The position numbers and the translations under genes are program-made. The notes beneath the pieces were generated by a model that was given only the letters and a program-made list of their open reading frames with translations, had not been told where the DNA came from and did no database searches. A DNA stretch of 64,000 nucleotides from Planctomycetota bacterium (GTDB taxonomy: Bacteria > Planctomycetota > Planctomycetia > Planctomycetales > Planctomycetaceae). Location of the stretch: contig QWQG01000254.1 in the NCBI GenBank assembly GCA_003670925.1, positions 1 through 64,000 on the forward strand, in the 5' to 3' direction. Below are positions 4,969-13,079 of this stretch, piece by piece. Within the stretch, counting starts at the first letter, position 1; each line of letters opens with the position of its first letter.

Positions 4969-5310
4969 ATGGTTTCCCGGCGTTTTATTCTGAATCCTTC
5001 GCGCACGGCCAAACAAGGCGCTCTGATCAATTCCGGCAAGGATACTCCTGAATATAAGGCGGTTGTCACCACTTTGACGATGGACGCTGCCGATATGAAG
5101 GAAATGGGAATTGAATCTGGCGATTCGGTAATCGTGCGCACCGAATTCGGCGAAGCCATATTTCAATGCGAACCGGGGAAGTGTCCAACGGGACTTTTGT
5201 TTGTACCGTACGGCCCACCAACTTGTAAACTGATGGGCGGCGACACTGATGGCACTGGAATGCCAACTTCAAAAGGCTGGGACGTCGATGTCGAACCGGT
5301 TCCAAAGTAG
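4969..5310 (+). CDS. fwdD: Formylmethanofuran dehydrogenase subunit D (molybdopterin-binding)
   Basis: The 113-aa product resembles FwdD/FmdD, a small beta-barrel protein homologous to the C-terminal molybdopterin-dinucleotide-binding domain of formate dehydrogenases. In archaeal enzymes FwdB and FwdD together form the W/Mo catalytic site. Family features are the N-terminal FILNPSRTAKQG, the central GDSVIVRTEFGE, and the C-terminal GLLFVPYGPP, then GGDTDGTGMPTSKGWDV. ATG at 4969 was chosen because an upstream in-frame ATG adds 15 residues without family resemblance. The gene heads the fwd cluster. Proteobacterial Fhc clusters have no such subunit, so its presence points to a real metal cofactor in the complex. 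Confidence 0.8.
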   Translation: MVSRRFILNPSRTAKQGALINSGKDTPEYKAVVTTLTMDAADMKEMGIESGDSVIVRTEFGEAIFQCEPGKCPTGLLFVPYGPPTCKLMGGDTDGTGMPTSKGWDVDVEPVPK

Positions 5311-5481: not shown

Positions 5482-5646
5482 ATGACTGACGACACAAATG
5501 CTGCAGCAGATTTTGTCTCAGACGAATCACCGCATTTTTCAGCCGAACCGCCGCAGCCACAATTTGCCGCATGGGAAGAAGTTGATAAAGGCCGTTTCAT
5601 GCCTCGTCGTGTACGAGGTAGCAATCCCGGCCGCGCGCTTGGTTGA
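5482..5646 (+). CDS. Small hypothetical protein (54 aa) in the fwd cluster
   Basis: This short ORF lies between fwdD and fwdB. It has an acidic N-terminal half (MTDDTNAAADFVSDESPHFS) and a basic C-terminal end (KGRFMPRRVRGSNPGRALG). The Arg-rich tail and Pro/Gly content suggest a conserved peptide and not random sequence, but I do not recognise a family. It begins with ATG about 170 bases after fwdD and ends about 115 bases before fwdB, on the same strand. A small accessory or assembly factor for the complex is possible from position alone. Confidence 0.5.
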   Translation: MTDDTNAAADFVSDESPHFSAEPPQPQFAAWEEVDKGRFMPRRVRGSNPGRALG

Positions 5647-5761: not shown

Positions 5762-7096
5762 ATGAGTCTCAACGTCATTAACAATGCCACATGTACGTTC
5801 TGCGGGTGCGTCTGCGACGACATTCAGCTTCACTTCGACGAGACGCGAATTCACGAAGCCAAAAAAGCCTGCGTGCTTGGCAAGGCGTGGTTTTTAAATC
5901 ATACGGCAGACCACGAATATCCGGACGCCCTGATCGACGGGCACGAAGCGACGGTGGACGAAGCGATCGAAGCTGCCGCTACGTTTTTGCATGACGCGCA
6001 CATGCCCTTGATTTATGGACTGAGCAACACGACCTGTGAAGCGCAGCGCGAAGCGGTCTCACTGGCCGACCGCCTCGGAGGGTTGCTAGACAGCCACACA
6101 TCGCTTTGACACGGTCCTACCGAAATCGCCGCCCAGTTGGGTGGTAAAGTGACGTGTACTCTTGGCGAAGTAAAGAACCGAGCAGACTTCATTGTGTACT
6201 GGGGCGGGAATCCTGCCGAATGCCATCCAAGGCATTTCACCAAGTATACGCTGATGCAAAAAAGTAAATTCCTGCCCCGTGGTCGTAAAGACCGCACGAT
6301 GATTCTGGTGGATATTCGCGAAACCAAAAGTGGGGGCGCCGCTGACATCTTTCTTCAGATTCGCCCCGGCAAGGACTTCGAAGTCTTGACGATTCTCCGC
6401 GCCATCTTAAAAGGACAGCATGTCAACGAATCGGCGATTGCGGAAACAGGCCTGACACTGGAACAGTTAACCGACTTTATCGACCGAGCGAAGAAGGCAA
6501 AGTTTGGCTGTATGTTTTTCGGGATGGGTTTGTCAATGACACGCGGTAAGCACATGAATTCTGCGGCGCTGCTGACCCTCGCGGCGGAACTCAATGCGTT
6601 CACGAAATTTGTGGCCATGCCGATGCGAGGCCATGGAAACGTCACCGGTGCGGACGTAATTATGCGATGGCAGACGGGGTTTCCTTTCGGGATCACCTTC
6701 AATCGCGGCTACCCGCGGTATAATCCCGGCGAGTTTTCAACAGTCGATGTACTCGTGCGCGGCGACACCGACGCAGCCCTCATTCTGGGGGCTGACCCGG
6801 GCGCGACGATGCCCCAGCCCGCGATCGATCACCTCGCCCGCATTCCGACGATTGTGCTCGACCCGAAAGTCACGCACACCAGCCGGCTCGCCCGCGTCCA
6901 CATCACCACGTCGGTCGCAGGGATCAGCGCTCCAGGAACTGCGTATCGGATGGATGAAATCCCACTCCCATTGAAGCCGGCGTTGAAGTCGCCATATCCT
7001 ACGGATCAAGAAGTGGTCCGCAGGATCAACGAAGCGGTGGCTCGTAAATCGCACTGGATTCCGGACGGTGGCCCAATGACCATTCTGCAGAGATAG
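5762..7096 (+). CDS. fwdB: Formylmethanofuran dehydrogenase subunit B, probable selenoprotein
   Basis: FwdB is the molybdopterin-guanine-dinucleotide subunit that interconverts CO2 and formate in the formylmethanofuran dehydrogenase complex. The reading frame is 444 residues with one in-frame TGA at residue 116. The codons on both sides are in the same frame and join conserved FwdB sequence: GGLLDSHTSL before, HGPTEIAAQLGG after, then TLGEVKNRADFIVYWGGNP. In archaeal FwdB the residue just before HGP is the Cys, or in some species Sec, that binds Mo/W (about residue 118). The N-terminus has CTFCGCVCDD (Cys 11, 14, 16, 18) plus Cys37, suiting a [4Fe-4S] cluster. ATG at 5762 follows a GGGGA ribosome-binding site. 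Standard gene callers would split this into two ORFs. A nonsense mutation or a read error is the alternative. Confidence 0.85.
6107..6109 (+). other. In-frame TGA, probable selenocysteine codon
   Basis: This TGA lies in frame at codon 116 of fwdB. The next codons encode His-Gly-Pro, matching the U/C-H-G-P active-site context of molybdopterin formate dehydrogenases and FwdB. Other genes in the window end normally with TGA, so global reassignment of the codon is not the explanation. Confidence 0.8.
6129..6144 (+). promoter_or_regulatory. Candidate bacterial SECIS hairpin
   Basis: CCGCCC-AGTT-GGGTGG forms a 6-bp stem (one G-U pair) with a four-base loop. A further G-U pair can close it at the base. 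The loop begins 25 nt after the TGA, and a G lies within its first two bases, with U beside it. These features agree with the general bacterial SECIS pattern of an apical loop a few tens of nucleotides downstream of UGA. There is no obvious bulged U as in E. coli fdhF. Confidence 0.6.
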
Positions 7097-9950: not shown

Positions 9951-11384
9951 ATGTTGATCAACGGTCAAGCTTTGCCGCCCGAACTACTCGATACCCGCCA
10001 CAAGGCGCTCCAGATCAATCTGGAGTCACGGCGGTACGGGACCTTCGCGGAGATTGGAGCAGGGCAGGAAGTCGTCCGCTGGTTCTTCCACGTAGGCGGA
10101 GCCTCTGGGACGATCGCCAAAAGTATTTCCGCATACGACATGACCGTCAGCGATGCGTACTACGGTTCCTGTGAGCGTTACGTTTGTCGCCAGCGACTGC
10201 AGAGTATGCTGGACTATGAGTTTTCTCAAAACCTCAGTCAACTCAGCGAAACACGGGGCCATACAACGGCATTTTTTGCCTTTGCGGATACTGTGTCCGC
10301 ACGTAACTTCAAGGGGACTAACGAATGCCATGGCTGGATGGGTGTCAAGTTTCAGGCTGACCCGAGGGACGCGGACAGCCAAGTTCTAATCCATGTTCGA
10401 ATGCTTGACATCGACAATGCGTTACAGCAGGAAGCACTCGGCATCGTCGGCGTGAATTTGTTATTTGCCGCATTTTTCATGCATCATGAGCCGGAGCGGA
10501 TGCTGAAATCGCTGCTCGATAATCTGAGCATCCAACGGATCGAAATTGACATGATCGAGTTTTCCGGGATCGCTTTCCGGAATGTCGATAATCGGATCAT
10601 GAGCCTGATGCTGGTGCAACTGGGTCTGAGTAACGCGGCCATGTTTGCTGCCAACGGGACGATGCTGCAACCGTCGGAAGTGCTGTACAAGAAATCCATT
10701 CTGGTGCAGCGCGGAAGCTTTCGCCCGGTCACGCATGTTCACATCGACATGCTCCGCTGCGCACACGAAAAATTCCAGCTGGAACCGGGGATGGACGGTG
10801 AGCCGGTTGAGCAGATCTTGGAAATCACGTTGAATAATCTGATGAGCGAAGGCGGACTGGATTACCGTGATTTTCTGGCCCGTGTGGATCTATTAGCCGC
10901 TGTAGGAATGACCGTACTTATCTCAAACTACTTCGAATACTACCGGCTCGCCGGATTTCTGGCCCGCTATACAGAAAAACGCATCGGGGTCACGATGGGA
11001 ATTTCGACTCTCCGTGAACTTTTCAATGAGAAGTATTACATGCATCTGGATGGCGGAATTTTAGAATCGTTCGGCCGCCTGTTTAAGGGCGACTTGAAGC
11101 TCTACATCTATCCGGAACTCAACGGCGACTCAGGAGAGTTGACGGTAGTTGAAAATCTACAAGTCGCCCCGCAATTGCGCAAGCTCTATGGTTATCTAGT
11201 GGATAAAGGTTGCATCGAACAGTTGCAAAACGTTAACGAGACATATCTGCCGATGTTCTCTCGCGACGCACTTAAGAAGATCAACGCTGGCGATGCGACG
11301 TGGGAAGACATGGTGCCCCGCGAAATCGCGATTCTGATTAGGCAGCGTGGCTTCTTCGGATGCCGGAAGAATACGAATGGATGA
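9951..11384 (+). CDS. Conserved protein of unknown function following fwdC
   Basis: The 477-aa soluble protein starts 26 bases after fwdC on the same strand, so it is probably co-transcribed with the C1 cluster. It has no signal peptide or membrane helix. Visible features include an N-terminal segment LDTRHKALQINLESRRYGTFAEIGAGQEVVRWFF that resembles a 'start of catalytic domain' signature, a mid-section rich in hydrophobic helices (EALGIVGVNLLFAAFF), and LISNYFEYYRLAGFLARYT. I do not recognise the family from sequence and assign no function. The tight spacing and the single cluster suggest it supports the fwd complex or its cofactors, but that is inference. Confidence 0.75.
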   Translation: MLINGQALPPELLDTRHKALQINLESRRYGTFAEIGAGQEVVRWFFHVGGASGTIAKSISAYDMTVSDAYYGSCERYVCRQRLQSMLDYEFSQNLSQLSETRGHTTAFFAFADTVSARNFKGTNECHGWMGVKFQADPRDADSQVLIHVRMLDIDNALQQEALGIVGVNLLFAAFFMHHEPERMLKSLLDNLSIQRIEIDMIEFSGIAFRNVDNRIMSLMLVQLGLSNAAMFAANGTMLQPSEVLYKKSILVQRGSFRPVTHVHIDMLRCAHEKFQLEPGMDGEPVEQILEITLNNLMSEGGLDYRDFLARVDLLAAVGMTVLISNYFEYYRLAGFLARYTEKRIGVTMGISTLRELFNEKYYMHLDGGILESFGRLFKGDLKLYIYPELNGDSGELTVVENLQVAPQLRKLYGYLVDKGCIEQLQNVNETYLPMFSRDALKKINAGDATWEDMVPREIAILIRQRGFFGCRKNTNG

Positions 11385-12308: not shown

Positions 12309-12581
12309 TCACCCTGCGAGATGTTCGACGGAGCGGGAGAAGCTGCAATGTTGAGTTCTGTCAACATGCGATGTCCACAACGGTGAAAAAAAAACAGGCA
12401 ACGGCGGCGAGCGGATAAGGCGAATCGTCCATAAGGGTTTACAGGGAATGTAGTTATGGAATCTTAAAAAAAATGGAGGGCGTTGGCACACGGATTGAAT
12501 AACCACTCCATTTAGAAGTGAATCCATGTCGGGTTCATGACAAGAATGCCATCCATGATTTGTTTCCGAAAGATTGCCACT

Positions 12582-13079
12582 ATGTCCAACAGCGACAACA
12601 TGTCTCCAAAATTCCGAATTACACGCCTCGAAGACCGAATCGTGCCAGGCTTATTGAGTTGGATGCCGTGTGGCCATGACAACCACTGTAATGACAACGG
12701 TTCATCTCGTGGTGGCAGCAACCGCGGTGGCTCAGAAAAAGGTGGATCAAACAAGTGCGATAACGGATCTAAGAAGCACGGCTCGAGCAAGAAGGGCAGC
12801 TCATGTAAGAAGCACGGCTCCAGCAAGAAGGGCAGCTCATGCAAGAAGCACGGCTCCAGCAAGAAGCACGCCTCATGTAAGAAGCACGGCTCCAGCAAGA
12901 AGGGCAGCTCATGTAAGAAGCACGGCTCCAGCAAGAAGCACGGCTCATGCAAGAAGCACGGCTCCAGCAAGAAGCACGGCTCATGCAAGAAGCACGGCTC
13001 CAGCAAGAAGCACGGCTCAAAGAAGGGTGGCAGCTCACGCAAGCACGGCTCTAAGCAGCACGGCAAGAAGTGCAAGTAG
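12582..13079 (+). CDS. Lys/Ser/His/Gly/Cys-rich tandem repeat protein
   Basis: The 165-aa product has a short N-terminus with FRITRLEDRIVPG, similar to the LEDR/LEPR motif near the start of many exported planctomycete proteins. A Gly/Ser/Asn stretch with Cys and His follows (MPCGHDNHCNDNG). About six copies of a 12-residue unit, consensus KKHGSSKK(G/H)(S/G)SC, then fill residues 65-150, with a Cys-poor basic end. The unit is also a near-exact 36-bp DNA repeat, so copy number may vary. Regularly spaced His and Cys suggest metal binding or cross-linking; the high Lys content suggests contact with anionic polymers. The start is uncertain: ATG codons at 12537, 12546, 12555, 12582 and 12600 are all in frame. 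A terminator follows. Confidence 0.65.
   Translation: MSNSDNMSPKFRITRLEDRIVPGLLSWMPCGHDNHCNDNGSSRGGSNRGGSEKGGSNKCDNGSKKHGSSKKGSSCKKHGSSKKGSSCKKHGSSKKHASCKKHGSSKKGSSCKKHGSSKKHGSCKKHGSSKKHGSCKKHGSSKKHGSKKGGSSRKHGSKQHGKKCK
12772..13015 (+). repeat. 36-bp tandem coding repeat
   Basis: The DNA array behind the repeat protein alternates aagaagcacggctc and cagcaagaag blocks, with only scattered changes between copies (for example tgtaag and tgcaag). The low divergence implies recent expansion or gene conversion. Confidence 0.85.

What the first reader, a model, noticed from the sequence alone, without database searches (positions are those of the whole stretch)
5762..7096. Probable selenocysteine in a bacterial formylmethanofuran dehydrogenase (FwdB)
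A single in-frame TGA splits fwdB at codon 116. Both sides are in the same frame and match FwdB: ...LLDSHTSL, then HGPTEIAAQ. The TGA occupies the position of the Mo/W-binding Cys, which is Sec in some methanogens such as Methanopyrus kandleri. A lone nonsense mutation would be unlikely to fall on this one codon while leaving 328 conserved residues downstream. Selenoprotein FwdB is known in archaea; I am not aware of a described bacterial case, but cannot search here.
Basis: partly seen in the sequence, partly recalled or inferred. Interest (0 to 1): 0.92.

Follow-up and report, generated by a model that had tools for sequence, protein, structure and literature searches.

The report
Selenocysteine formylmethanofuran dehydrogenase in a planctomycete
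A 'stop' codon in the middle of a planctomycete gene for a one-carbon enzyme is almost certainly read as the rare amino acid selenocysteine at the metal-binding active site; a planctomycete case was published in 2016, and this work adds a conserved RNA signal and a wide distribution.

Summary
fwdB/fmdB (window 5762-7096) has one in-frame TGA at codon 116 (6107-6109), aligned with the W/Mo-ligating Cys of solved archaeal FwdB. The selenocysteine (Sec) reading is strongly supported. The window's own genome has tRNA-Sec, selA, selB and selD. The TGA is kept in 29 of 150 same-family genomes and in all 80 named public loci retrieved, including a complete genome. 28 of those 29 genomes have a full selA; in the 29th it is cut by a contig end. 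A bacterial-type SECIS hairpin follows, its AGUU loop 25 nt after the TGA. The loop codons CAG-TTG are identical in 89 of 89 distinct genes, although TTG is only 19% of Leu codons elsewhere in the gene. Cys homologues lack the hairpin. The operon fwdD-fwdB-fwdA-fwdC and the intact Fe-S motif argue for a redox-active formylmethanofuran dehydrogenase rather than the pterin-less bacterial hydrolase (Fhc). Added here: breadth, SECIS constraint, linkage to sel genes, separation from sampled archaeal copies. No protein or selenium has been measured.

The parts
4969..5310 (+). fwdD: molybdopterin-dinucleotide-binding subunit
   Evidence: PF01568 34.6 bits (cut-off 26.8); NF042908 FwdD E 1.3e-21, 77 bits, below its 175-bit 'exception' cut-off; same-strand neighbour of Sec-fwdB in 97 of 101 loci
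5762..7096 (+). fwdB/fmdB: catalytic subunit B, 444 aa with Sec at residue 116
   Evidence: TIGR03129 494.9 bits over residues 8-426; PDB FwdB relatives E down to 5.6e-110
5792..5815 (+). N-terminal [4Fe-4S] motif CTFCGCVC (residues 11-18)
   Evidence: translation; motif kept in homologues
6107..6109 (+). TGA read as selenocysteine (residue 116), Mo/W ligand position
   Evidence: aligns with Cys of 5t5i_B and 8rja_B and with X of 9sfi_Q; TGA in all 108 Sec-clade matches among the first loci read
6128..6145 (+). bacterial SECIS hairpin: 7-bp stem 6128-6134 / 6139-6145, AGUU apical loop 6135-6138, 25 nt between TGA and loop
   Evidence: single-strand fold -15.6 kcal/mol from the TGA, -12.5 for the 26-nt core (z -3.1); same hairpin predicted unprompted on 24 aligned relatives; 86 of 90 loci versus 0 of 34 Cys homologues with the AGUU loop
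7347..8978 (+). fwdA: amidohydrolase subunit A
   Evidence: TIGR03121 694.7 bits
9092..9925 (+). fwdC: subunit C (GXGXG)
   Evidence: TIGR03122 252.8 bits

Best explanation
The TGA at 6107-6109 is decoded as selenocysteine by a standard bacterial Sec system. SelA makes Sec-tRNA(Sec); SelB carries it and binds an in-frame SECIS hairpin whose loop starts 25 nt after the UGA. The Sec becomes the protein ligand of the W or Mo of a bis-pyranopterin cofactor held between FwdB and FwdD. Together with FwdA and FwdC this forms a redox-active formylmethanofuran dehydrogenase-type complex. Shown by sequence: the TGA, its conservation, the SECIS, the machinery, the subunits and the metal-ligand position. 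Inferred: that Sec is actually inserted, the metal, and the direction of reaction (most likely oxidation of the formyl unit from H4MPT-linked C1 metabolism to CO2, reversible in principle).
For: tRNA-Sec over Rfam cut-off (68.1 vs 47 bits) and called independently by ARAGORN with anticodon TCA. selB 344 bits in total (cut-off 242; SelB-specific barrel and SelB-wing_3 domains), selA 450.7 bits (cut-off 268), selD 239.7 bits (cut-off 125). TGA in every ortholog of at least 72% identity. The homologous column is Cys in the 54-59% clade and Cys or Gly in more distant planctomycete paralogues; Cys in 5t5i and 8rja, X (non-standard residue) in 9sfi_Q. The SECIS meets every published bSECIS limit (loop 3-9 nt, G in the first two loop bases, spacing 16-37 nt, MFE at most -7.5; PMC13188914). 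Codons 125-126 (CAG TTG) are invariant in 89 of 89 genes and are the two most constrained of 224 conserved-residue codons; codon re-draws give hairpin plus loop in only 2.5%. selA over cut-off in 28 of 29 TGA genomes versus 38 of 121 others, p 3.6e-11. In one relative (L168) selD, selB, selA and tRNA-Sec lie about 5 kb from fwdDBAC. FwdD lies next to Sec-fwdB in 97 of 101 loci.
Against: No protein, selenium or activity data. The p-value ignores relatedness of the genomes. The SECIS stem has no compensatory double changes, because most variable positions are wobble sites in a protein-constrained stretch; the support is synonymous-codon invariance. selD here is fused to a flavoprotein-like domain and also scores in the 'fusion_not_SelD' family, though below that family's cut-off. 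Reaction direction, metal and electron partner are not shown.
Confidence: 0.88

Rival explanations
1. A nonsense mutation or sequencing error that left a pseudogene.
For: A TGA in frame is normally a stop; the window is from a draft assembly of 259 contigs.
Against: The same codon is TGA in every close homologue examined, in independent assemblies including a complete chromosome; the downstream part is more conserved than the upstream part; sel genes are present.
Confidence: 0.01
2. The TGA is a real stop or a read-through site that takes a different amino acid, or two separate proteins are made from the two halves.
For: A TTG-started ORF covers 6137-7096.
Against: That ORF would lack the active-site stretch HGPTEIAAQ; the codon sits exactly on the metal ligand; the SECIS and the sel genes explain decoding without further assumptions.
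Confidence: 0.03
3. Sec is inserted, but the complex works as a hydrolase scaffold like bacterial Fhc rather than as a dehydrogenase.
For: Experimentally studied bacterial relatives of this family are formyltransferase/hydrolase complexes without Mo/W cofactor (PMC10100899; PMC11656701); the genome also has two Ftr/FhcD-family genes.
Against: Fhc lacks the D subunit and the pterin (PMC11656701); here FwdD, the CxxCxxxC motif and the Sec ligand are all kept. Keeping Sec across the clade would make little sense in a dead site.
Confidence: 0.08

Closest known systems
Sec-FmdB of planctomycete P2 (Rhodopirellula lineage) and a Lake Washington fosmid, PLoS One 2016, PMC4807772
   Same: Planctomycete fmdB with Sec, operon fmdD-fmdB-fmdA-fmdC, full Sec machinery, and a second Cys-type fmdB in the same genome.
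   Different: Different organism. That paper used SECIS presence as an identification criterion in its methods, but the SECIS, its constraint and the breadth across planctomycetes are not described in the main-text passages read here (supplements not available).
Sec-containing FwdB of Methanopyrus kandleri and other methanogens
   Same: Same subunit, same active-site position, UHGP/UHxP motif.
   Different: Archaeal SECIS is not the bacterial in-frame type; the bacterial Sec clade is separate from the four archaeal FwdB sequences in the tree.
Bacterial formyltransferase/hydrolase complex (FhcB)
   Same: Homologous B, A and C subunits.
   Different: FhcB has no Mo/W-pterin and the complex lacks FwdD (PMC10100899, PMC11656701); here FwdD and the metal ligand are present.
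Bacterial Sec formate dehydrogenase (FdhA/FdhF)
   Same: Sec as Mo/W ligand in a UHxP motif and an in-frame SECIS.
   Different: FwdB plus FwdD are separate proteins and associate with FwdA/FwdC.

Membership tests
FwdB/FmdB (formylmethanofuran dehydrogenase subunit B) | Full-length profile match | tested here: met
   TIGR03129 494.9 bits, cut-off 327.8, residues 8-426
FwdB/FmdB (formylmethanofuran dehydrogenase subunit B) | N-terminal [4Fe-4S] motif and Cys/Sec metal ligand at the structurally known position | tested here: met
   CTFCGCVC; codon 116 aligned with Cys in 5t5i_B and 8rja_B
FwdB/FmdB (formylmethanofuran dehydrogenase subunit B) | Partner subunits FwdA, FwdC, FwdD | tested here: met
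   FwdD by Pfam domain and a subfamily match below that model's own cut-off
FwdB/FmdB (formylmethanofuran dehydrogenase subunit B) | W/Mo-bisPGD bound and formyl-carrier-linked formate dehydrogenase activity | not testable with these tools
   needs purified complex
Bacterial selenoprotein | In-frame UGA paired with Cys in homologues | tested here: met
   TGA in the Sec clade; TGC/TGT in the 54-59% clade
Bacterial selenoprotein | bSECIS element downstream of the UGA | tested here: met
   loop 4 nt AGUU, 7-bp stem, spacing 25 nt, MFE -12.5 to -15.6 (limits from PMC13188914)
Bacterial selenoprotein | tRNA-Sec, SelA, SelB, SelD in the genome | tested here: met
Bacterial selenoprotein | Selenium in the protein | not testable with these tools
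   75Se labelling or mass spectrometry needed
Fhc formyltransferase/hydrolase complex | B subunit without metal ligand, no D subunit | tested here: not met
   Sec/Cys ligand present, FwdD adjacent

The most novel reading that the evidence does not exclude
Planctomycetes carry a distinct bacterial class of selenium-dependent, redox-active formylmethanofuran dehydrogenase, with a fixed bacterial SECIS, that joins H4MPT-linked C1 metabolism directly to CO2. In some lineages (such as this genus, where selA and Sec-fwdB occur together in 3 of the genomes sampled and neither was found in the other 8) it may be a main reason that the Sec machinery is kept.
Probability: 0.5. Interest if true: 0.6.

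Novelty: new member of a known kind. Interest (0 to 1): 0.42.

Why it matters
Sec-FmdB in planctomycetes has been in print since 2016 but has not reached the general literature read here. [quoted passage not shown] The standard code splits these genes at the TGA, so a widespread and probably redox-active C1 enzyme is easily mis-annotated. A complete genome that carries it (K23_9, CP036526.1) makes direct tests practical, if the strain can be grown.

Tried and rejected
Rfam has no model matching this SECIS. A long fold of 81 nt was not significant (z -1.1); the signal is in the 26-nt core. The DNA-pattern search over the phylum was too narrow: it required the codon before TGA to be TTN and so missed the window itself (CTT); its count is not used. 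The first synonymous null drew codon usage from the tested region and was replaced. The small ORF at 5482-5646 was searched in the wrong frame, so its conservation is untested. The Molybdopterin family search of the own genome shows no other TGA-interrupted member, so no Sec formate dehydrogenase was seen there. Pseudogene and sequencing error were considered and rejected.

Full report
OBSERVATION. The frame 5762-7096 holds a single TGA at codon 116 (6107-6109), and the two sides together give a 444-aa FwdB. The whole protein matches TIGR03129 from residue 8 to 426. Against solved structures the best relatives are FwdB-type chains. Residue 116 falls on the Cys of 5t5i_B ('SVCHGP') and 8rja_B, and on an X (non-standard residue) in 9sfi_Q, so it is the Mo/W ligand position.

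CONSERVATION OF THE TGA. In 150 genomes of the same family, 29 carry an ortholog of 72-100% identity and every one has exactly one TGA. A scan of public genomes returned 80 loci (the best of 405 that encode relatives), all with TGA at this codon, including the complete chromosome CP036526.1. Among these, one record is labelled Phycisphaeraceae and one Acidobacteria; both are MAGs, so horizontal transfer or binning error cannot be separated. The next clade (54-59% identity) has TGC or TGT, and the 41-45% paralogues have TGC, TGT or Gly codons. Identity after the TGA is higher than before it, and differences sit at third codon positions, so the downstream part is translated in this frame.

MACHINERY. 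The window's genome (5.78 Mb, 99.5% complete) has tRNA-Sec, selB (domains), selA and selD. selA over its cut-off is found in 28 of the 29 genomes with Sec-fwdB (the 29th, G005, has a selA cut by a contig end) and in 38 of the other 121; Fisher p 3.6e-11, not corrected for relatedness. Within the window's own genus selA and Sec-fwdB coincide: 3 of the 11 sampled genomes have both, and neither was found in the other 8. In G030 (L168), selD, selB, selA and tRNA-Sec lie on one 18-kb stretch with fwdD-fwdB(TGA)-fwdA-fwdC.

SECIS. The RNA after the TGA folds into a 7-bp stem with an AGUU loop, 25 nt after the UGA (window 6128-6145). The same hairpin, and no other, is the consensus fold of 24 diverse relatives. 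It forms in 86 of 90 distinct loci; none of 34 Cys homologues has the AGUU loop and only one has any hairpin within the bSECIS limits. Published limits for bacterial SECIS are a 3-9 nt loop, G in one of the first two loop positions, spacing 16-37 nt and MFE at most -7.5 kcal/mol (PMC13188914); all are met. The strongest evidence is codon use. Across 224 positions with conserved residues, the two codons making the loop, CAG 125 and TTG 126, are invariant in 89 of 89 genes, and codon 124 is next. TTG is 18.6% of Leu codons elsewhere in these genes, and re-drawing synonymous codons gives this hairpin and loop in 2.5% of trials against 86 of 90 observed. No pair shows changes on both sides, so covariation itself neither adds nor subtracts.

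OPERON AND FUNCTION. fwdD (PF01568), fwdA and fwdC flank fwdB on the same strand; across Sec loci with enough flank, fwdD is present in 97 of 101, fwdA in 62 of 68 and fwdC in 54 of 64. FwdD was not detected next to any of 15 distant Cys or Gly paralogues (a divergent FwdD could be missed). In archaeal FMD the metallopterin sits between B and D, and loss of D goes with loss of the cofactor in the Methylorubrum Fhc complex (PMC11656701; PMC10100899). The planctomycete Sec complex keeps D, the N-terminal Cys motif and the metal ligand, so it most likely does formate/CO2 redox chemistry coupled to a formyl carrier. The genome also has two Ftr/FhcD-family genes, as expected for H4MPT-linked C1 transfer. 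Direction of reaction, metal and electron acceptor are inferred, not shown; the polyferredoxin subunits FwdF/FwdG of archaeal complexes were not searched for. The same genome holds a Cys-type FwdB paralogue (G000:C259, 43-46% identity) with no fwdA/C/D detected beside it.

EVOLUTION. In a tree of 65 proteins the bacterial Sec copies form one supported group (97/98), apart from the four archaeal FwdB used, one of which has the non-standard residue. The Thr-bearing tandem copies of two Gemmataceae genomes are its sister. With four archaeal sequences this does not settle whether Sec was gained once or several times.

PRIOR WORK. PMC4807772 (2016) reports fmdB as a selenoprotein in planctomycete P2 and two unclassified bacteria, with the operon fmdD-fmdB-fmdA-fmdC, and notes that P2 also has a Cys form. 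This is the same kind of gene. Later papers do not carry it: PMC7331816 (2020) speaks of no bacterial FwdB; PMC10100899 (2023) does list bacterial FwdB from metagenomes and ascribes them to transfer from archaea; PMC13188914 (2026) mentions methanogens only. PMC5020050 (2016) states that fwdD is absent from planctomycetes, which the loci here contradict.

VERDICT. Observation confirmed, Sec interpretation supported; not the first bacterial case. Best filed as a new member of a known kind, with added evidence on SECIS, distribution and linkage.

Noticed in passing
L129:2884-5265 (G000:C123): SelD is the C-terminal half of a 793-aa protein whose N-terminal half is a pyridine nucleotide-disulfide oxidoreductase (TIGR03169 'Nterm_to_SelD').
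   Followed up: partly
window 9951-11384: 477-aa ORF after fwdC has no Pfam or NCBIfam match and was not found near Sec-fwdB in 55 other loci.
   Followed up: partly
L115:3547-4854 and L119:3619-4887: A tandem fwdB-like copy with Thr in place of Sec lies directly upstream of the Sec copy in two Gemmataceae genomes.
   Followed up: partly
L168:15256-16170: A second fwdB fragment without the N-terminal part and active site overlaps the end of fwdC, followed by a second fwdA; may be a deletion or an assembly join.
   Followed up: no
window 12537-13079: ORF made of repeated KKHGSS/CKKHGSS units, with an equally open repeat frame on the other strand.
   Followed up: no
L101 (QHWJ01000381.1): Sec-fwdB in a MAG labelled Acidobacteria falls inside the planctomycete group: transfer or misbinned contig.
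   Followed up: no
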